A DNA stretch of 64,000 bases. Origin: Chryseobacterium aurantiacum (GTDB taxonomy: Bacteria; Bacteroidota; Bacteroidia; Flavobacteriales; Weeksellaceae). Position numbers and translations under genes: made by a program. The DNA lies in assembly GCF_003020585.1 (NCBI RefSeq), contig NZ_PXUE01000003.1, forward strand, positions 62,001 through 126,000, in the 5' to 3' direction. The notes under the pieces are model-generated. The model searched no databases. It was not told the origin of the DNA and was given only the letters and a program-made list of their open reading frames with translations. Every line of letters starts with the position of its first letter. Positions within the stretch are counted from its first letter, which is position 1. Shown piece by piece: positions 36,975 to 50,039 of the stretch.

Positions 36975-38561
36975 TTATTCCAAGATGGTAACAGTAACTT
37001 TTTTGTTCCATTTAAAGTTTCTCACCTGTTCTTTTAAGATATTATGAATTTCGGGATTGATGGAGTAAATATACAAGTGATCTTCCCCTAGCACGGCACT
37101 GCTTCCATTGATCTTTAAAGCAGCAATCTTTTTCCAGTTTCTAGGAGTGTGTCCATCAAGCCATTCCTCATAAGCTATGGCGAGCTGATAGTTATTATCA
37201 CGGGTATAGTTGGTAAGAAAGTCTTCGACCTCATCATCAAAAAACTTCTTCTTAATTTTAAATTCAACCATTTCCATGGATCCCAACCCCATAAAATCAA
37301 GCAAATGAATATCTGTGAAGTAAGTGATTGCTCCAATATCATTGGCCACCACTTTAGAATCATTGTAATAGGTATTTAAGAATCTGGCAGATTCTACCTG
37401 TTGCTCATAAATATTTGCACTTCCATTGGTAATTAAAGTATGACCATACCCAAATTTATAAATAAGCAAGGCCATATTTGCCAATACAAAGATTCCTATT
37501 ATTTTCTCTGTTTTAAAGGTTAACCATGGCTTTGTAATAAAAGAAACTAACCTCGGGATTAGGATCATAGCAAAAGCAACTAATAAATAAGCCTCATATC
37601 TGAAAATACTTTTAATCTCCCCAAACAGGCAATGCAAAACTAGAGTGAGACCCCAAGCCAAGAATAGGAAATTCTTCAATACAATATTTTTAAAACTCAA
37701 CTTGCACTTATAATCCCGGTACATCAAAATTACCCCGATCAATAATGGGAATATTCCTATCTTATAAAAGGTAATATTTAAAATCAACTTTTTTAAGATA
37801 ATTTCCAGTGCCTGAGTAAAAACATTGCCTGAAAGATCCAGCAAGGTCCCCTTTACTACTACTGAATTGGGGAAGAAATATCCACTTCTGGGATAATTGA
37901 AATACCCAAAAATAAGAATCGGAAGAAAACCAATAATAAGTACAAGTCCTGCATTCTTAAATTTCCTGATCAAAAAGAAAACAAAAGCAAGGGAGGCAAA
38001 GTAAAACATGCTTTCAAATCTTATTAATCCCAATAAAAGAATGGTAAAATAAAACCAATATGCATAGACTCCTGCCTTAAAGTTCTCTTTGATCCATTTT
38101 TGAAAACAATAAATATTCACAGCTATTACAAGCACTTGCAGGACATGTTCCATTCCTGATACAATCTGCACATGGAGTACTGCAAAGAAAAGAGTAAACA
38201 AACAGGCAATAACAATATGTCTGGATTGGTTAAAATAATATGAATAGTATTTATTCAGGATCACAATAAGCAAACAGGCTGCGGCTATATTAAAAATCAA
38301 AGGGATAAGTGCATGATTTCCAAAAACAGAAATCAAAATACTTAAAATAAATGTAAAAACGGGAGATGATGAAGAGGATGAAAAGGCATATTTTGTTACT
38401 CCCCAAACTCCGTGTAATGCAAAATTTTTAGCCACCGCCAAATGAATATAAGCATCATCCAATATATAAGTAAAGTAGTTCTCAGTAGTAGACAGCATGA
38501 TCAGAATATACATCAAACATACTCCGAAAAATAAAGTTACTGTTGTTAAAAAGCTTTTCAT
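36975..38561 (-). CDS. Polytopic membrane protein, glycosyltransferase-like (copy 2 of a tandem pair)
   Basis: 528 aa from ATG at 38561, chosen because the sister gene starts at the equivalent MKS and both share the preceding leader. About ten hydrophobic segments follow. The conserved N-terminal loop YILDDAYIHLAVAKNFALHG, with an acidic pair after the first membrane helix, resembles GT-C lipid-sugar-dependent glycosyltransferases of the ArnT/PMT type. The C-terminal part is soluble-looking (EQQVESARFLNTYYNDSKVV). Substrate and function are unknown. It is a close paralogue of the gene at 38660-40246. Confidence 0.8.
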   Translation of the reverse strand: MKSFLTTVTLFFGVCLMYILIMLSTTENYFTYILDDAYIHLAVAKNFALHGVWGVTKYAFSSSSSSPVFTFILSILISVFGNHALIPLIFNIAAACLLIVILNKYYSYYFNQSRHIVIACLFTLFFAVLHVQIVSGMEHVLQVLVIAVNIYCFQKWIKENFKAGVYAYWFYFTILLLGLIRFESMFYFASLAFVFFLIRKFKNAGLVLIIGFLPILIFGYFNYPRSGYFFPNSVVVKGTLLDLSGNVFTQALEIILKKLILNITFYKIGIFPLLIGVILMYRDYKCKLSFKNIVLKNFLFLAWGLTLVLHCLFGEIKSIFRYEAYLLVAFAMILIPRLVSFITKPWLTFKTEKIIGIFVLANMALLIYKFGYGHTLITNGSANIYEQQVESARFLNTYYNDSKVVANDIGAITYFTDIHLLDFMGLGSMEMVEFKIKKKFFDDEVEDFLTNYTRDNNYQLAIAYEEWLDGHTPRNWKKIAALKINGSSAVLGEDHLYIYSINPEIHNILKEQVRNFKWNKKVTVTILE

Positions 38562-38659
38562 TATTTGCAATATTACCACTTCCAAACTATTAAAAAAAAT
38601 GCAATAACACCTGTTCATTTAAAAGGAAACAATCCGAACATGATATAGCTATCAAGAAT

Positions 38660-40246
38660 TTAGTTGATTAGCTTAACTGATACATTTTTGTTCCATTTAA
38701 AGTTTCTCACCTGTTCTTTTAAAGCTCCGTGAATTTTGGGATTAATGGAGTAAATATATAAGTGATCTCTCCCCAGCACAGCATTGCTTCCACTGATTGT
38801 TAAAACAGCAACCTTTTTCCAGTTTTTTGGAGTATGCCCTTCTAACCATTCTTCATAGGCTATTGCAAGCTGGTAGTTATTTTTGATTGTATACTCTGTT
38901 AAGAATTTTTCAAATTGATCATCTATTCCTATTAACCTTTTTCTAAAGGGCATCACTTCCTTTGATCCCAGTCCCTCAAAGTCTAGCAGACGAATATCAG
39001 TAAAATAACAGATTGCCCCAATATCATTAGCGACCACTTTAGAATCGTTATAATATTTTTTCAGAAATCTGGCAGACTGTATCTGCTGTTCATAGATATT
39101 TCTACTTCCAACCACAATAAGATCGCTGACAATCCCAATCTTCAAGAGTAAAGTAAGACATGACAGCAAGAGCAATGAAGAAACAAGTCTATTTTCTTTC
39201 AATAAAAAATTACGTTGTTCAAAAACAGACCTGAGCCTTGGAAGAATAGCCATAGCAAAGCCTATTAATATATACACTTCATATCGATACAATCTGGTCA
39301 ACTGACTGAAAGTACCATGCAGAAACAATGTAATACACCAAACAATAAGAAGAAAATGATTTACTACAATTTTTTGAAAACTCAAACCCTTTTTAACATC
39401 TTTGGCAATTAGAATTGCAGAAAGCAGTAGTGGTAGTAAACCAGCAAAATAAAAATAACGGTTATATAAGATTTTATTAAACAATATACTGGCTATCTGC
39501 CTAAAGAAAGCATCAGAAAAATCAAACTTGGCCCCCTTTACAACAACTGAATTGGGAAAAAAATATCCTGTTTCCTGATAAGTAAAATATCCGAAAATTA
39601 AAACGGGAATAAAACCAAATACCAGTACCCAGGCAACCTGCTTCCATCTTCTCAGCAACAGAAAAACTAAGGCAAGCGATAAGAAATAGAACATAAAATC
39701 AAACCTGATCAGCCCAAGCAAAGCAAGGGTACAATAAAACCAACCTGAATAATAGCGATCTCTATACTCAGACCTCAACCATCTTTCAAGGCAGAGAACA
39801 TTCACAACCATTACCAATGCCTGCATCACATGCTCCATTCCAGAAAAAACAAGAAGCGAAACAGAAGCAAAAAACAATGTAAAAAGATTACTCAATATAA
39901 TGGACTTGGTTTTACTAAAATAATCTGCATAGTATTTATTCAGAAAATATATTGCAAAAAAGGCACATAGTAAATTAAAAATCAAAGGAATAAGTTCATG
40001 ATCTCCAAATAGATAAATAAGACCACTTAAAATTACAGTAAAAACCGGTGAAGAAGAGGTAGAAGAAAAAGTATACTTTGTGACACCCCACACTCCATGA
40101 AAAGCAAAATTCTTAGCTATTGCAAGATGGATATAGGCATCATCCAGAATATAGGTAAAATAACCCTCGGTTTCCGAAAGCATTAGGAGCATGTAAACCA
40201 TACACATTCCAAAAAATAATGCCGCAGTTGTTAGTAAACTTTTCAT
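38660..40246 (-). CDS. Polytopic membrane protein, glycosyltransferase-like (copy 1 of a tandem pair)
   Basis: 528 aa from ATG at 40246; an extension to a TTG at 40270 is less likely. It has the same length and architecture as its downstream neighbour, with near-identical N-terminal (YILDDAYIHLAIAKNFAFHG) and C-terminal (LKEQVRNFKWNKNVSVKLIN) ends and more divergent membrane helices between. It is probably a GT-C-like enzyme acting at the periplasmic face. The two genes are 98 bp apart. Confidence 0.8.
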   Translation of the reverse strand: MKSLLTTAALFFGMCMVYMLLMLSETEGYFTYILDDAYIHLAIAKNFAFHGVWGVTKYTFSSTSSSPVFTVILSGLIYLFGDHELIPLIFNLLCAFFAIYFLNKYYADYFSKTKSIILSNLFTLFFASVSLLVFSGMEHVMQALVMVVNVLCLERWLRSEYRDRYYSGWFYCTLALLGLIRFDFMFYFLSLALVFLLLRRWKQVAWVLVFGFIPVLIFGYFTYQETGYFFPNSVVVKGAKFDFSDAFFRQIASILFNKILYNRYFYFAGLLPLLLSAILIAKDVKKGLSFQKIVVNHFLLIVWCITLFLHGTFSQLTRLYRYEVYILIGFAMAILPRLRSVFEQRNFLLKENRLVSSLLLLSCLTLLLKIGIVSDLIVVGSRNIYEQQIQSARFLKKYYNDSKVVANDIGAICYFTDIRLLDFEGLGSKEVMPFRKRLIGIDDQFEKFLTEYTIKNNYQLAIAYEEWLEGHTPKNWKKVAVLTISGSNAVLGRDHLYIYSINPKIHGALKEQVRNFKWNKNVSVKLIN

Positions 40247-40338
40247 TATTTGCAATATTAATACTTCCAAACTATTTTAAAAAATTTTCTTATAGTTATC
40301 ATCTATCAATAAGCAAGGGAGTTCGGCACGATATTTCG

Positions 40339-42838: not shown

Positions 42839-43006
42839 TTAATCAAAACAGATATACGGTTTTCTTGGTGGGTAACAGCAATAAGGATTACTACAAAACG
42901 TGTATCCTGCCGGACATCCTCCGTCTACAGGAGTTTCACAAGCCAATGCTGCACCTCCCAAGACAGTTTTCAACTCTTTCCTGTTTAAGTTTTTTAAATT
43001 TTTCAT
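42839..43006 (-). CDS. GG-leader, six-Cys bacteriocin-like peptide
   Basis: A 55-codon gene from ATG at 43006. The N-terminus MKNLKNLNRKELKTVLGG is a double-glycine leader (Gly17-Gly18) of the kind that is cleaved during export of bacteriocin-like peptides in Flavobacteriia. The mature part of about 37 residues has six Cys (23, 31, 38, 43, 44, 53) in a Gly/Pro/Tyr-rich context, for example CSNPYCCYPP. Such peptides are common in Chryseobacterium and are often annotated as bacteriocin-like, without proven activity. No export peptidase or immunity gene is seen nearby. Confidence 0.8.
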   Translation of the reverse strand: MKNLKNLNRKELKTVLGGAALACETPVDGGCPAGYTFCSNPYCCYPPRKPYICFD

Positions 43007-43271
43007 GATTAATTTTGTTTAGTTTAATTTCCTACTCTTAAAGATTTTCGGATTCCTCTTTTTTATTTCTCTTTATGTAGAAATAAATATACAATTTCTT
43101 TTTTAATCTATTACATTTCAAATAATTATATATAAATAATGCGAAAAATATAAAACATATCTCTTGTTTTAATGAATTAATTTAATTATTTTAGCTTATT
43201 AGCAATTCCACTTATCAATCTAATTGTGAGTAGTTTGCAAACAAACAATACCATAATTAAAAATTAATTCC

Positions 43272-43508
43272 ATGAAAAAAATTAATGTATCAAAACTTTC
43301 AAGAGCAAAACTGAAAGATGTATTCGGCGGGTATTTATATCTGCCAGAATGTCCCGGAGGATGTCATGGTGAGGGCATGATCAGATGTCCTGACGGCACT
43401 ACCACAATGACTAATTTTATATGTATGGGGGGAACCTGCCAACCGGCCGCCATGTGCAAACCATTGGTTCTTGAACCTTTTCCTGGTCCCATTGAAATCA
43501 CTCCATAA
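43272..43508 (+). CDS. GG-leader, six-Cys peptide divergent from its neighbour
   Basis: 78 aa. The leader MKKINVSKLSRAKLKDVFGG ends in Gly19-Gly20, followed by a mature part of 58 residues with six Cys (27, 31, 39, 51, 56, 62), for example LPECPGGCHGEG and FICMGGTCQPAAMC, and a Pro-rich end. The leader resembles that of the minus-strand peptide at 42839-43006, but the mature sequences differ. Export and processing by a C39-type peptidase encoded elsewhere are inferred. A terminator lies 17 bp downstream. Confidence 0.8.
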   Translation: MKKINVSKLSRAKLKDVFGGYLYLPECPGGCHGEGMIRCPDGTTTMTNFICMGGTCQPAAMCKPLVLEPFPGPIEITP

Positions 43509-44462: not shown

Positions 44463-47400
44463 CTATATTGTTTCCTTATGCTTTTTACGATAGGCATAAT
44501 GAAATACAATTGGCAATACTGTAAATGATAGCAGCATACAGATGATAAGTCCTCCAACAATCATAATGGCTAAAGGTTTTTGAATTTCTGACCCCATTCC
44601 GTTGGACATTGCCGCAGGAAGAAGTCCCATAGACCCCATTAATGCAATCATTACTACCGGCCGAATTCTGCTTTTAACTCCTTCTGAAATAGACTCTTTT
44701 AGGGACATTCTATTTTGAAGATTCTCTTTCATTACCCCAATCAGGACAATCCCGTCAATGGTAGCTACTCCGAAAAGGATAATGAAACCAATTCCTGCCG
44801 AAATTCCAAAGATGGTTCCTGTAAACCATAGGGATAAAAACCCTCCAATAAATGCAAAGGCCAGTGTGATGGATGAGATCAGTGTATCTTTTACATTTCC
44901 AAAGTTGAAATACAGGAGCATAAGAATAAGAACTAAGGAAATTGGAACCACCATTGCCAACTGCTTTGCTGCTCTTTCTTTGCTTTCAAACTCACCGGCC
45001 CAGGTCATTTTATGATTTTTGGGAAGCTTTACATCTTTATCCACTTTAATCTTGGCTTCTTCAATGGTACTTCCCAGATCACGTCCCTCGATATTGAATC
45101 CTACTCCAATGTATCTGCTGTTTCCTTCACGGTAAATAAAGGATGGCCCCGTATGATAGTCGATGGTTGCAATTTCCTTCAATGGTACTTTTTTATTATC
45201 CTGAGTAGGAATCAAAATATTTCCCATTTTTTCCGGAGTATCACGGTATTCTTTTTCAAACCTCAGCATCACGTCAAACATTCTTTCTTCTTCATAGAAC
45301 TTGGTTGCAGCCTGTCCTCCAATCGTCATTTCAATTACGGCCTGCGCATCTGCTGTAGAAACACCATACTTAGCCATTTTAGAATCGTGAAGCTGTATTC
45401 TCAGTTCCGGAAGCCCAATATTTTTGAAAACATTTACATCTGAAATTCCCGGAACGGTTCTGATGGAATTAGCGACCTGATTGGCATAATTTTCAAGTTC
45501 AAATAAATCATTCCCAAATATTTTAATAACCAACGGAGCTTTTACCCCGGCAACATATTCTTCTACGTTATCCTGAATTGGCTGGCTGAAACCGAAATTG
45601 ATACCAGGATATTTTTCAAGAGAAACCCTCATTTCCTCAAGAAGTTCTTCTTTGGATATTTTTTTCTTCCACTCCTTTTCAGGTTTCAGCTGGATATTAA
45701 ATTCAATATTAAAAAATCCTGTGGGATCTGTTCCATCATTGGGACGGCCGGTTTGGGTCATTACAAATTTCACTTCATCATACTTCATCAAAATCTCTTT
45801 CATCTCCTTGGTCAACCGCACAGATTCATCAAGATTTACACTGTTGGGAAGTGTTGCCCGTACATAGATAGCTCCCTCATTCAGTTTGGGTAGAAATTCT
45901 GAACCGTAATTTGAGAACTTCCATCCACAAATTGCAATTAACCCTACAAAACCAATGATAAATCCTTTTTTATGATGAATACTGAACTCGTAGATTCTGT
46001 AAATATTTACCCTGAAGAATCTGGAAATAAAGTTCTCTTTTTCTTCAATATTTTTAGTTAATAAAAGCTTACACATCGCCGGAACATACGTTAAGCTTAG
46101 AATTAATGATCCTAACAAAGCATAGCCTAATGTAAACGCCAGAGGTGAGAACATTTTGCCCTCCACTTTCTGGAATGAGAAGATCGGCATCAGGGCTACA
46201 ATCAGGATCAATAGGGCAAAGAAAATATAACTTGCTACACTTCCTGCACTCTTCTTGATGATTCCTAGTTTAGAAATTTTATTAAATCTCTTTAATCCAA
46301 TTTTTTTAGCTTTCAATTCGAGGGCAACAAATACATGTTCTACGATGACCAGGGTTCCCTCCAGCAGCAACCCAAAATCAAGCGCTCCCATGGAAATCAA
46401 GTTAGCCGGCAATCCCTGAATTTTCAGCATAATGATTGCAAAAAGGAATGCCAATGGAATCACAGAGGCAACAATAAATGTAGTTCTCCAGTTATACAGA
46501 AATATGAATACAATAATGGAAACCAGAATTACCCCTTCAATCAAATTTTTGGAAACGGTATGAACGGTTGTATTTACCAGTTCTGTACGGTCAATAATAG
46601 GAACAATCTGAACATCTCCTGGTAATTCTCCGCCATTCAGCTGTTCTATTCTGTCTTTAAGTCTTGCAATCACTTCACTTGGATTTTCACCACGAAGCAT
46701 GATTACAATGCCTTCTACAACATCATTTTCTTTGTTGTACCCTACCTGACCCAATCTTGGCTTTGCAGAAACCTTTACTTCAGCAACGTGCTTTACCAAA
46801 ATAGGAGTAGAACCTTTTACCTCAATCTGAATATTTTCAATATCCTCTTTTTTCTCTAAAAGACCAATCCCCCTCACTACATAAGCCTGATCTCCTTTTG
46901 CTACTACATCTCCGCCTACATTAATATTACTCTTCGAAACTGCTTCATACACATCCAGGGGGGAAAGGTCATAATTGTGTAGCTCCGTAGGATTAATTTT
47001 TATTTCATATGTTTTTTCCTCTCCACCAAAGCTTACCACATCAGCAACTCCCGGAACGGCCAACAATTCTCTTTCTACCACCCAATCCTGAATGGCGGTA
47101 ACTTCTTTAATGGGTAATTTACTTTTAATAATATACCTGTAAATTTCACCGGTGGCTCCTGATGGAGGCTCAATACTATATTCTGCTCCACCCGGAAGAT
47201 TTACATTTCCTAATTTATTGGAAGCATATTGCTGGGCATAAAAATCATTGACATGGTCATCAAAAATGACCGTAACCACAGATAATCCGAATAAAGAAAT
47301 GGAGCGCACCGAAGTTTTATTCGGGATCGCATTCATCTCCTTGGAAATTGGGAGCGTGACAAATTTCTCTATTTCTTCAGCACTTCTTCCCGGCCATTGG

Positions 47401-47561
47401 GTAATGACTCTTACCCTTGTATTGGTAACATCCGGAAATGCCTCAATAGGAGTATGTATATAGGAATAAATACCTCCAGCCAACAAAAGAAAAGTTCCTA
47501 AAAGAACAATCAGTGAGTTTTTTAACGAAAAGGAAACTATATTCTGTACAAATTTTCGCAT
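44463..47561 (-). CDS. RND efflux pump, heavy-metal (CusA/CzcA) type
   Basis: Proton-driven inner-membrane pump of a tripartite efflux system, 1032 aa. It has the RND architecture: one N-terminal membrane helix, a large periplasmic domain (about 35-335), five helices, a second periplasmic domain (about 560-860) and a final helix bundle. The central segment TGRPNDGTDPTGFF and GALDFGLLLEGTLVIVEH in TM4 place it with heavy-metal efflux members. In that TM4 motif the second acidic residue is Glu where CzcA/CusA usually have Asp. The ATG overlaps the adaptor stop codon by 1 bp. The metal or other substrate is not determined. Confidence 0.93.
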   Translation of the reverse strand: MRKFVQNIVSFSLKNSLIVLLGTFLLLAGGIYSYIHTPIEAFPDVTNTRVRVITQWPGRSAEEIEKFVTLPISKEMNAIPNKTSVRSISLFGLSVVTVIFDDHVNDFYAQQYASNKLGNVNLPGGAEYSIEPPSGATGEIYRYIIKSKLPIKEVTAIQDWVVERELLAVPGVADVVSFGGEEKTYEIKINPTELHNYDLSPLDVYEAVSKSNINVGGDVVAKGDQAYVVRGIGLLEKKEDIENIQIEVKGSTPILVKHVAEVKVSAKPRLGQVGYNKENDVVEGIVIMLRGENPSEVIARLKDRIEQLNGGELPGDVQIVPIIDRTELVNTTVHTVSKNLIEGVILVSIIVFIFLYNWRTTFIVASVIPLAFLFAIIMLKIQGLPANLISMGALDFGLLLEGTLVIVEHVFVALELKAKKIGLKRFNKISKLGIIKKSAGSVASYIFFALLILIVALMPIFSFQKVEGKMFSPLAFTLGYALLGSLILSLTYVPAMCKLLLTKNIEEKENFISRFFRVNIYRIYEFSIHHKKGFIIGFVGLIAICGWKFSNYGSEFLPKLNEGAIYVRATLPNSVNLDESVRLTKEMKEILMKYDEVKFVMTQTGRPNDGTDPTGFFNIEFNIQLKPEKEWKKKISKEELLEEMRVSLEKYPGINFGFSQPIQDNVEEYVAGVKAPLVIKIFGNDLFELENYANQVANSIRTVPGISDVNVFKNIGLPELRIQLHDSKMAKYGVSTADAQAVIEMTIGGQAATKFYEEERMFDVMLRFEKEYRDTPEKMGNILIPTQDNKKVPLKEIATIDYHTGPSFIYREGNSRYIGVGFNIEGRDLGSTIEEAKIKVDKDVKLPKNHKMTWAGEFESKERAAKQLAMVVPISLVLILMLLYFNFGNVKDTLISSITLAFAFIGGFLSLWFTGTIFGISAGIGFIILFGVATIDGIVLIGVMKENLQNRMSLKESISEGVKSRIRPVVMIALMGSMGLLPAAMSNGMGSEIQKPLAIMIVGGLIICMLLSFTVLPIVFHYAYRKKHKETI

Positions 47562-48676
47562 TACTTGGTCGACTTATTTAATTGATTTTTCAGGTTTTCA
47601 TAGATCAGTAACCCATTAGAGGCAATTACATTTTCTCCCTGCTTTAAGTTTCCTTCTACATAAATATACTGGCTGTTGGAAGCCACTTCTGTTACAGGCC
47701 TTATCTCCAGTTCACAGTCTTTTTTATACACTACCACATAACTTTGATTGTTGTCAAAGATCAATGCCTTTGCAGGTATAGCCAATGCGCTTTTATTTTG
47801 AGAATTAACAGGCAAAACAACATCTGCTGACATTCCTGGCCTTAGCTTCATCCCGTTATTATCCATAATAATCTTGGCCTTTAATACTCTTTCATTTTCA
47901 TTAAACACCTGTGATATATTGTTGATTTTACCTGAGAAATTATCATCAGGATAAGCCAAAGTCTTTACCACAACAGGTTGGTCTACGTACACGTGCCTCA
48001 TATTGGTTGCATATACATTCGCCATTACCCAAACCTTATCCAGATTAGAAATAGTGAAAAGCTGATCTCCACCAGCGGTAACCGGCATTCCCTTGGAAAT
48101 ATTCTTGGCAATAACATATCCGTCTGCAGGGGCCTTTATCTGAATGGTACTTCCCCCCGCAGAATACAGCTGCATATTTTTTTGAGTCTTTGAAATATTG
48201 GACTGTAATATGGTTACTTCCGATCTGGCTTCCTGAAGGTCTTTTTGAGAAGCGATATCGTCTTTATACATGGCTTCTACAGAAGCCAGTTTTCTTTTGG
48301 CCACAGCCAATTGCGCTTGTAAGGTTTGAGTATCATCCTGCATTTCGTTAACCGCTGTACTTTTTACACTGGCTAGAATCTGTCCTTTTTTTACATAATC
48401 TCCCAAAGAAAAATAGGTATCTGTAACCACTCCATCTACAAGGCTTACAAAGGGAACTGTTTTATCAGAATTACTCTCCACTTCTCCGGTAAGAGTGATG
48501 CTTTCTTCTATGGGAAGCATTTCTGCTTTAGCAAGTTTAATATCCTTTTTTAGCTCCTTGCTGATGCAGTATGTTTTTTCTGCTTCATTATCCTGTTTTT
48601 GATCTTTACAGCCTGTAAGCGTAACCAGGGCAGACAGATATATTACTGCAATGTATTGGGTAGTATTTATTTTCAT
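47561..48676 (-). CDS. Periplasmic adaptor (membrane fusion) lipoprotein of the efflux pump
   Basis: 371 aa. The lipoprotein signal ends ALVTLTGCKDQ with Cys at residue 23. Features of CusB/CzcB-type adaptors are the barrel-sandwich half motif TDTYFSLGDYVKKGQILASV, a short helical hairpin (about residues 115-175) and the second half IQIKAPADGYVIAKNISKGM. It links the RND pump to the outer-membrane factor encoded just upstream and is translationally coupled to the pump gene. Confidence 0.92.
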   Translation of the reverse strand: MKINTTQYIAVIYLSALVTLTGCKDQKQDNEAEKTYCISKELKKDIKLAKAEMLPIEESITLTGEVESNSDKTVPFVSLVDGVVTDTYFSLGDYVKKGQILASVKSTAVNEMQDDTQTLQAQLAVAKRKLASVEAMYKDDIASQKDLQEARSEVTILQSNISKTQKNMQLYSAGGSTIQIKAPADGYVIAKNISKGMPVTAGGDQLFTISNLDKVWVMANVYATNMRHVYVDQPVVVKTLAYPDDNFSGKINNISQVFNENERVLKAKIIMDNNGMKLRPGMSADVVLPVNSQNKSALAIPAKALIFDNNQSYVVVYKKDCELEIRPVTEVASNSQYIYVEGNLKQGENVIASNGLLIYENLKNQLNKSTK

Positions 48677-48764
48677 AAGTAGATGTTTGTATTTTTATAA
48701 GGTAATGGATAGTTGTCTGCGGTATCCCTATTCACTGGGATTCTTTCAATGACAGCTTTACATC

Positions 48765-50039
48765 TTATAAATCTTGTCCTACAACATATTGCAGGTTTTC
48801 GTAGTATTGATTAAGTTCCTTTTTAGTATCCAGTATGATCATTTTATTGCCAATGTAGGTATCCAGAAAATCCATGTATTCCAGCATACTGATATTTCTT
48901 AGTCTAAAGTTTTTCTCATGACTCACCAACAAACCGTCTAATGTAGCTTCGTAAGCATCATCAATTTCTTCGGAAACTTCCTGGGTACGGATATAATTTC
49001 TGAAAACGGAGACTATTTCATTCTCAGACTTCAACCTATTTTTTCGGGTTTCATTCTTGCTTTTCTCTATTTCAAGCTTAGCTTCCTGAATATTTCCTTT
49101 ATTTCTGTCGAAAATCGGAAGATCAACCGAAACCCCTAATCCAATAAAGTCTTTCATAATATTTCCCCCTCGGTCATACCCTATGGAAACTGCTACATCA
49201 GGAGTCTTCATTGCATTTTGAATTTCAAGATTCTTAAAAGCATGCTTTTCTTTGTTTTTTGAAATCAAGATATCCGGACGATTTTCCTTTGCCTTTTCCA
49301 GCCACTGTGTCAATTCTATTTCCGAAAGTTGTTTTTCCGGCATTGTAAATACATCTGAAATCACAAGGTAAGAATGGGACGGAATCATAAGTAAAGATTT
49401 CAGCTCCACTTGTTGATCTTCAATTTCCTGCTTCAATGAAACAAGCTTTTTCTTGAATTCAATTTCCTGAGCCTTTAAACGAACATACTCTGCCTTACTA
49501 ATATTCCCCAGATTCAATTGGTTATGATAGGATTTCGTTAATTTTTCAATGGATGCAATCTGCCCCTGATAGATCTTTTGCTGTTCCTGATTGAACAAAA
49601 TTTCAGTAATTGTATTCCTCAACGTTTTTTTGAGCTCACGTAATACTTCCTGTAGTTCATACTTTTCTCCCTCAACTTCAATTTTCTGCAATTCAATATT
49701 TTTTCTTCTCTTTCCTGCTGTCTGAATTACCTGTTCTATTTCTGCAGAGATCTGTGTGTTTTTTCCCCAGTTTCCAATCAGTGCAGGCTGCTCTTCAATA
49801 TCATAAGTTCTCCACAGATTAACTTCACTGATGCTTAATTTAGGATTGGGCCAGTATTTAGCCTGAACTGCCCTTGCCTCTGCCTGAGAAATTTCAAGTT
49901 TTTGGGCAATAAGATCAAGGTTATTGGCAAGAAAAATCGTTTCAGCTTCCTTTCTGTCAATTCTCAGAGTATCTGAAATCTGTGCTGAAAAGAAACTGAA
50001 ACAATGAATATAAAATAGTGTAAAAAAAATTTTCTTCAA
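48765..50039 (-). CDS. TolC-family outer-membrane factor
   Basis: 424 aa from a TTG start at 50039; no ATG precedes it in frame after a stop, and the signal peptide (KKIFFTLFYIHCFSFFSAQ) begins directly after the TTG. Two OEP-type helical repeats are visible, the second around VSIGYDRGGNIMKDFIGLGV. It forms the outer-membrane exit duct of the pump. It is the first gene of the three-gene efflux operon, with a consensus promoter upstream. Confidence 0.88.
   Translation of the reverse strand: MKKIFFTLFYIHCFSFFSAQISDTLRIDRKEAETIFLANNLDLIAQKLEISQAEARAVQAKYWPNPKLSISEVNLWRTYDIEEQPALIGNWGKNTQISAEIEQVIQTAGKRRKNIELQKIEVEGEKYELQEVLRELKKTLRNTITEILFNQEQQKIYQGQIASIEKLTKSYHNQLNLGNISKAEYVRLKAQEIEFKKKLVSLKQEIEDQQVELKSLLMIPSHSYLVISDVFTMPEKQLSEIELTQWLEKAKENRPDILISKNKEKHAFKNLEIQNAMKTPDVAVSIGYDRGGNIMKDFIGLGVSVDLPIFDRNKGNIQEAKLEIEKSKNETRKNRLKSENEIVSVFRNYIRTQEVSEEIDDAYEATLDGLLVSHEKNFRLRNISMLEYMDFLDTYIGNKMIILDTKKELNQYYENLQYVVGQDL

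What the first reader, a model, noticed from the sequence alone, without database searches (positions are those of the whole stretch)
42839..43508. Two divergent GG-leader peptides, each with six cysteines
A 55-residue minus-strand peptide and a 78-residue plus-strand peptide both begin with a basic leader ending in Gly-Gly and both carry exactly six Cys in the mature part, but with different spacing. They face away from each other across a 265-bp gap. The pairing suggests a two-peptide toxin, or a toxin with a decoy or signal peptide. No C39 peptidase/ABC exporter or obvious immunity gene is in the window, so maturation must use a remote transporter. What the peptides do is unknown.
Basis: partly seen in the sequence, partly recalled or inferred. 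Interest (0 to 1): 0.75.

Follow-up and report, generated by a model that had tools for sequence, protein, structure and literature searches.

The report
Two exported disulfide peptides, shared exporter
Two small genes sitting back to back encode secreted-type cysteine-rich peptides that belong to a set of some 47 such peptides scattered through one Chryseobacterium genome, apparently cut, exported and disulfide-bonded by one machine encoded far away, and one of the two carries a small structured RNA element that also precedes several other peptides of the set.

Summary
In detail: a 55-aa minus-strand and a 78-aa plus-strand precursor, each with a GG leader and six Cys, diverge across 265 bp. 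Both are conserved genes under purifying selection.

They are not an obligate two-peptide toxin. They are two of 47 GG-leader, Cys-rich peptides read in this genome (27 over the family cut-off); 46 of 47 have an even Cys number. The genome has one C39 match over cut-off, on another contig, in a cluster with HlyD, a VKOR-thioredoxin protein and a further member peptide. Across 246 family genomes leader and VKOR go together (both 102, one only 10, neither 134).

Where both peptides have strong matches they are divergent neighbours (30 of 30 genomes), but 54 of 87 genomes with the plus peptide lack the minus one. Only the minus peptide has a DUF805b RNA; 53 of 88 such sites read in the genus precede GG peptides, and covariation supports a pseudoknot.

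Most likely: bacteriocin-like peptides matured in trans by one oxidative export machine. Activity is untested.

The parts
42839..43006 (-). GG-leader Cys-rich precursor, 55 aa ('P-minus'); leader residues 1-18, mature part 19-55 with six Cys
   Evidence: ORF; NCBIfam NF047798 leader_Chryseo 30.4 bits, cut-off 23.5; matches in 42 of 148 genus genomes at E<=1e-5; six Cys invariant in 23 of 23 rows aligned
43029..43061 (-). DUF805b RNA element (RF02914) in the 5' leader of P-minus; its 3' end lies 23 nt upstream of the A of the ATG; H-type pseudoknot fold proposed
   Evidence: 44.5 bits vs gathering 35.6; core pattern found upstream of P-minus in 29 of 30 loci read; covariation over 86 elements
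43272..43508 (+). GG-leader Cys-rich precursor, 78 aa ('P-plus'); leader residues 1-20, mature part 21-78 with six Cys
   Evidence: ORF; below cut-offs of NF047798 (15.0 of 23.5) and TIGR04149 (19.1 of 25); matches in 87 of 148 genus genomes at E<=1e-5; GG and six Cys invariant in 21 of 21 rows aligned
43007..43271 (.). 265-bp divergent intergenic region, presumably holding both promoters (not tested)
   Evidence: sequence; gap under 400 bp in 28 of 31 neighbouring pairs

Best explanation
The two genes are two separable members of a genome-wide set of some 47 disulfide-rich, double-glycine-leader peptides. The precursors are made in the cytoplasm, recognised through the shared type of leader, cut after GG and exported in trans by the single C39 peptidase ABC exporter (with HlyD) encoded on another contig. 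A VKOR-thioredoxin protein encoded in the same cluster oxidises the cysteines, giving three disulfides in each of these two peptides. P-minus is in addition controlled through a DUF805b RNA pseudoknot about 20 nt before its start codon, which it shares with a subset of the set; P-plus is not. The mature peptides most likely act outside the cell as bacteriocin-like antagonistic peptides. Shown: genes, conservation, leaders, Cys pattern, RNA element, exporter/VKOR cluster and co-occurrence. Inferred: cleavage, export, disulfides, RNA function and biological activity (antibacterial action itself about 0.45).
For: Set: 51 leader matches in the genome at E<=10, 27 over cut-off (none of 14 control genomes over cut-off); 47 of the 50 places given were read as ORFs of 44-94 aa; 46 of 47 with an even Cys number; over 45 that could be split, leaders 53% identical pairwise, mature parts 27% against 25% after shuffling. 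Machine: one C39 match over cut-off; the contig C14 cluster holds a VKOR + Thioredoxin_4 protein, a DUF805b RNA with a 54-aa member peptide, the C39-ABC exporter and HlyD. Coupling: leader and VKOR both in 102, leader only 4, VKOR only 6, neither 134 of 246 family genomes; within the genus 90/1/1/7 of 99. A VKOR match lies within 3 kb of a C39 match in 33 of 36 VKOR genomes. Selection. [quoted passage not shown]
Against: No expression, cleavage or export data. 20 of the 47 peptides score below the leader cut-off, P-plus among them (15.1), and at E<=10 the leader model also rings in 8 of 14 control genomes; so the size of the set is approximate and P-plus's use of the same exporter is less sure. 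Conservation of P-plus at one locus in 87 of 148 genomes is unlike a fast-diversifying bacteriocin. Co-occurrence counts are not corrected for relatedness; 10 of 246 genomes carry only one of leader and VKOR. Several relatives hold more than one C39 match.
Confidence: 0.75

Rival explanations
1. A dedicated two-peptide bacteriocin (or toxin plus decoy) whose two halves act together.
For: Conserved divergent adjacency in 30 of 30 genomes with a strong P-minus match and a P-plus match (31 matches); six Cys each.
Against: 54 of 87 P-plus genomes lack P-minus and 8 of 38 strong P-minus genomes lack P-plus; separate transcription; DUF805b RNA on one only; flanking genes recur (YCII-like in 48 of 59, DUF5995 in 47 of 59 loci, which overlap in part), so shared position can explain adjacency; other members cluster too. 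In one genome (G020) the nearest P-plus copy has two in-frame stops.
Confidence: 0.1
2. The peptides are extracellular signals (pheromone-like) rather than weapons; each conserved paralogue reports to its own receptor.
For: P-plus is constrained (mature dN/dS 0.11) and found in 87 of 148 genomes, one copy in most; no immunity-like gene was recognised at the locus; GG peptides serve cell-to-cell communication in other bacteria (opening lines of the abstracts of PMC7595303 and PMC7018657).
Against: The immediate neighbours are a YCII-related and a DUF5995 protein, not a recognisable sensor; disulfide-rich, mutually unrelated mature parts; the closest tested peptides of the phylum kill (PMC6671954).
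Confidence: 0.3
3. The precursors are further modified (rSAM or graspetide type) before export; the grasp-with-spasm enzymes beside the exporter act on them.
For: TIGR04192 and TIGR04193 enzymes lie beside VKOR in the C14 cluster; P-plus shows a sub-threshold TIGR04149 match.
Against: A separate 53-aa GG peptide with two Cys lies in that cluster and is the likelier graspetide precursor (C14:94011; judged by eye); no such enzyme was recognised near 42.8-43.5 kb; family scores below cut-off.
Confidence: 0.08

Closest known systems
Bacteroidetocins (class IIa-related peptide toxins of Bacteroidetes; PMC6671954, passages read)
   Same: Similar-type leader, at least two Cys, exporter with double-glycine peptidase domain and, in most regions, a thiol oxidoreductase; no obvious immunity gene
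   Different: There peptide, oxidoreductase and exporter form one four-gene region; here one cluster appears to serve some 47 dispersed genes, most with four to eight Cys, and the two window peptides lie on another contig
NCBIfam NF047798 leader_Chryseo 'bacteriocin-like protein'
   Same: P-minus is a member by score
   Different: An 18-position leader model; P-plus falls below its cut-off; exporter, VKOR and RNA element are not part of it
Rfam RF02914 DUF805b RNA
   Same: The element before P-minus matches over the full model
   Different: The covariance model as printed draws one hairpin only; here a second, covarying helix and a link to GG-peptide genes are seen. Whether the original description drew a pseudoknot could not be read
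Prochlorosins (opening lines of the abstract of PMC10783134)
   Same: Many precursors served by one promiscuous machine; function unknown
   Different: Modified by a ProcM enzyme; here disulfides are inferred and the shared machine is an exporter plus oxidase

Membership tests
NF047798 leader_Chryseo | score over curated cut-off 23.5 bits (P-minus) | tested here: met
   30.4 bits
NF047798 leader_Chryseo | same, for P-plus | tested here: not met
   15.0 bits
TIGR04149 rSAM-modified RiPP | score over cut-off 25 bits | tested here: not met
   P-plus 19.1, P-minus 13.6
Pfam Bacteriocin_IIc | gathering score 27.1 | tested here: not met
   P-minus 16.7; P-plus no match at E<=1
Bacteroidetocin | peptide gene in one region with exporter and TM/oxidoreductase genes | tested here: not met
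   C39 and VKOR matches on contig C14, window on C9
Bacteroidetocin | kills Bacteroidales | not testable with these tools
   needs an assay
Two-peptide bacteriocin | both peptides always together | tested here: not met
   54 of 87 P-plus genomes without P-minus at E<=1e-5
Two-peptide bacteriocin | both needed for activity | not testable with these tools
   needs an assay
GG peptide exported by a C39 ABC transporter | conserved GG at the leader end in orthologues | tested here: met
   P-plus GG in 21 of 21 rows; P-minus first G in 23 of 23, second G in 21 of 23 (GA in L157, GS in L164)
GG peptide exported by a C39 ABC transporter | C39 exporter encoded in the genome | tested here: met
   one match over cut-off, 126.8 bits
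GG peptide exported by a C39 ABC transporter | cleavage after GG and export | not testable with these tools
   needs mass spectrometry
DUF805b RNA (RF02914) | gathering score 35.6 | tested here: met
   44.5 bits

The most novel reading that the evidence does not exclude
DUF805b is a compact regulatory pseudoknot (of about preQ1-riboswitch size, recalled) that marks a regulon of exported peptides and other competition-type genes in Flavobacteriales; it switches a subset of a conotoxin-like repertoire of some 47 disulfide peptides (conserved leader, unrelated mature parts) matured in trans by one VKOR-coupled C39 exporter. The window pair is one member under the switch beside one member outside it.
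Probability: 0.4. Interest if true: 0.75.

Novelty: new variant of a known kind. Interest (0 to 1): 0.55.

Why it matters
If right, a bacterial genus carries tens of dispersed, mutually unrelated disulfide peptides that one exporter and one oxidase mature. Deleting two genes would then reveal the whole secreted set at once, and the DUF805b RNA, for which no function turned up in the searches made here, would have a concrete set of target genes in which to look for its ligand or binding protein.

Tried and rejected
Structure prediction: P-plus model pLDDT 43.9, unusable; P-minus 68.9 with a short beta hairpin, PDB search without a significant match (best E 0.75). A fixed promoter position upstream of DUF805b: scattered TAnnTTTG-like boxes, with up to one mismatch peaks of 9, 8 and 12 of 96 near -41, -30 and -16; not conclusive. 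Immunity gene: the neighbours are a YCII-related protein and a DUF5995 protein, which recur as flanks; no reason to call either immunity. Literature: no paper in the held library for 'DUF805b' or 'DUF805' with 'RNA motif'; for Chryseobacterium, GG-leader, bacteriocin, C39 and VKOR terms I saw only listings with opening lines of abstracts (2 of 2 papers, 18 of 18, 20 of 126, 20 of 57, 12 of 794), and none of those shown describes this repertoire. The original DUF805b description (recalled as Weinberg 2017) is not held, so a pseudoknot drawn there cannot be excluded.

Controls and rows dropped. At E<=10 the leader model rings in 8 and DUF805b in 14 of 14 control genomes, neither over its cut-off in any; at the stricter limits they ring in none. 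VKOR rings in 3 and C39 in 8 of the 14 controls. Of 51 leader places I gave 50 to (the weakest was left out); 3 could not be read from the fetched DNA, 47 were. Of these 47, 45 could be split at the leader end, a few perhaps at the wrong residue. Of 96 DUF805b elements 88 are distinct; 2 with a one-base deletion were left out. The fifth possible pair of the first helix is not supported (22 of 86, below its shuffle mean of 30.5), and pairs that hardly vary (second pair of helix 1, first two of helix 2) say little. Alignments A1 and A2 and the dN/dS sets are chosen rows (23, 21, 15 and 16 sequences; the last two of equal length only). The 96 DUF805b sites read are the 11 of the own genome at E<=1e-4 (10 over the gathering score) plus high-scoring rows printed, not a random sample; classes were set by an HMM built from this genome's leaders plus hand rules, and one member of each of several classes was checked against Pfam; the lanthipeptide type was named by eye. 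One of 39 strong P-minus matches and three of the listed P-plus matches hold in-frame stops. L300 and L301 were fetched and not analysed.

Full report
Observation. By NCBIfam the minus peptide is a 'leader_Chryseo, bacteriocin-like protein' (30.4 bits, cut-off 23.5); the plus peptide is below the cut-off of each family it touches. The 38 named relatives of the plus peptide all come from records titled Chryseobacterium, so the window is taken to be from that genus.

They are real genes. The minus peptide has matches in 42 and the plus peptide in 87 of 148 genus genomes at E<=1e-5. All six Cys are invariant in the 23 minus-peptide and 21 plus-peptide rows that I aligned; the GG is invariant in the latter and has two exceptions at its second G in the former. 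Pooled Nei-Gojobori dN/dS is 0.06 (leader) and 0.08 (mature) for 15 minus-peptide sequences, 0.27 and 0.11 for 16 plus-peptide sequences.

The pair. Of 39 strong minus-peptide matches (over 50 bits, 38 genomes) 31, in 30 genomes, have a plus-peptide match within 3 kb; all 31 are divergent and 28 have a gap below 400 bp. The other 8 genomes have no plus-peptide match. Of 87 genomes with the plus peptide 33 have a minus-peptide match at E<=1e-5 and 54 have none. In one of the 28 close pairs (G020) the near plus-peptide copy has two in-frame stops. Neighbours recur: the YCII-like gene in 48 of 59 and the DUF5995 gene in 47 of 59 loci, which overlap in part and reach only 1.5 kb from the match. 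The pair is a stable piece of synteny of two separable genes.

A repertoire. The leader model finds 51 places in this 4.6-Mb genome at E<=10, 27 over cut-off; at E<=10 it also rings in 8 of 14 control genomes, but over cut-off in none. Of 50 places taken on, 47 read as ORFs of 44-94 aa, 20 of them below the cut-off. 46 of 47 have an even Cys number (18 with four, 25 with six, two with eight, one with two); one has five. Over 45 that could be split, leaders are on average 53% identical, mature parts 27%, against 25% for shuffled mature parts. 22 of 47 lie within 1 kb of another member. The architecture is a common type of leader on unrelated Cys-rich mature peptides. In 36 genus genomes the number of matches at E<=0.02 runs from 0 (G011) and 1 (G029) to 58; in 23 genomes of other families of the order there was none.

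The machine. The genome has one C39 peptidase match over cut-off, on contig C14, while the window is on C9. On the minus strand there (L072), in order of transcription, lie an ATP-grasp and a SPASM maturase of the grasp-with-spasm type (TIGR04192, 360.7 bits; TIGR04193, 414 bits), a 502-aa protein with VKOR and Thioredoxin_4 domains, a DUF805b RNA with a 54-aa member peptide, the C39-ABC exporter (730 aa) and a HlyD protein. Over 59 relatives VKOR is found in 36, and within 3 kb of a C39 match in 33 of these. Over 246 family genomes, leader (E<=5e-4) and VKOR (E<=1e-4) occur both in 102, leader alone in 4, VKOR alone in 6, neither in 134; within the genus 90, 1, 1 and 7 of 99; outside it 12, 3, 5 and 127 of 147. 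The counts are not corrected for descent. That VKOR-type proteins make disulfides is recalled knowledge; that this one does so on these peptides is an inference.

The RNA. An RF02914 (DUF805b) element ends 23 nt upstream of the A of the minus peptide's ATG. Its core pattern is kept before the minus peptide in 29 of 30 loci read (the gene of L171 was not read by the script); the pattern was not seen before any plus-peptide ORF printed. In this genome 11 elements were taken (10 over the gathering score); 7 precede leader-type peptides, an overlap with a chance of about 1e-11 if 3,500-4,200 genes are assumed. I read 96 sites. Of 88 in the genus, 47 precede leader_Chryseo-type peptides, 4 lanthipeptide-type GG precursors (by eye), 2 other GG peptides, 7 small signal-peptide Cys proteins (DUF6520-like), 7 tail-collar proteins, 6 trypsin-like proteins, 6 of an unnamed family of about 197 aa, 2 caspases and 7 others; of 8 in other families 3 precede GG-like peptides (Pfam checks of single members), and those three lie some 2-5 kb from a C39 match. 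The Rfam model as printed draws one hairpin. In 86 distinct elements the three letters before the invariant GAAAA can pair with three near the element's 3' end: the first two pairs in 86 of 86 each but with little variation, the third in 82 of 86, with T-A 56, G-C 16, C-G 6 and 4 others, against a shuffle mean of 50.7 that none of 10,000 shuffles reached; the hairpin pairs hold in 85, 86, 85 and 56 of 86, a fifth possible one only in 22. This is the pattern of an H-type pseudoknot. The shuffles do not remove relatedness, but the alternative pairs occur before unrelated genes.

What it works like. [quoted passage not shown] The window peptides work, I think, in the same way but in trans, from dispersed genes through one export and oxidation cluster. 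Prochlorosins (opening lines of the abstract of PMC10783134) share the many-substrates-one-machine logic. Whether the peptides kill, signal or do something else is open; I put antibacterial action at about 0.45 and signalling at about 0.3, the conservation of the plus peptide being the main point for the latter.

Noticed in passing
window 43029-43061 (-) and 85 further distinct elements: DUF805b RNA shows covariation for a second helix, making an H-type pseudoknot of about 35 nt; the Rfam covariance model as printed shows one hairpin.
   Followed up: partly
G000:C14:80000-96000 (L072): Grasp-with-spasm enzymes with a 53-aa GG peptide lie beside the VKOR/C39/HlyD cluster; graspetide (chryseoviridin) loci are known in the genus (passages of PMC8939145).
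   Followed up: partly
L135, L120, L247, L283, L145: DUF805b also precedes genes of trypsin-like, caspase, phage tail-collar, LodA-type and PixA families, hinting at a wider regulon.
   Followed up: partly
G000:C8:16431-16481 (-): One leader peptide (94 aa) has a long GGVVGGV-type repeat before four Cys.
   Followed up: no
window 36975-40270 (-): Tandem pair of similar large membrane proteins (547 and 536 aa), judged by eye.
   Followed up: no
window 44463-50039 (-): Looks like an RND efflux operon (1032-aa pump, 371-aa adaptor, 424-aa outer-membrane factor), judged by eye only.
   Followed up: no
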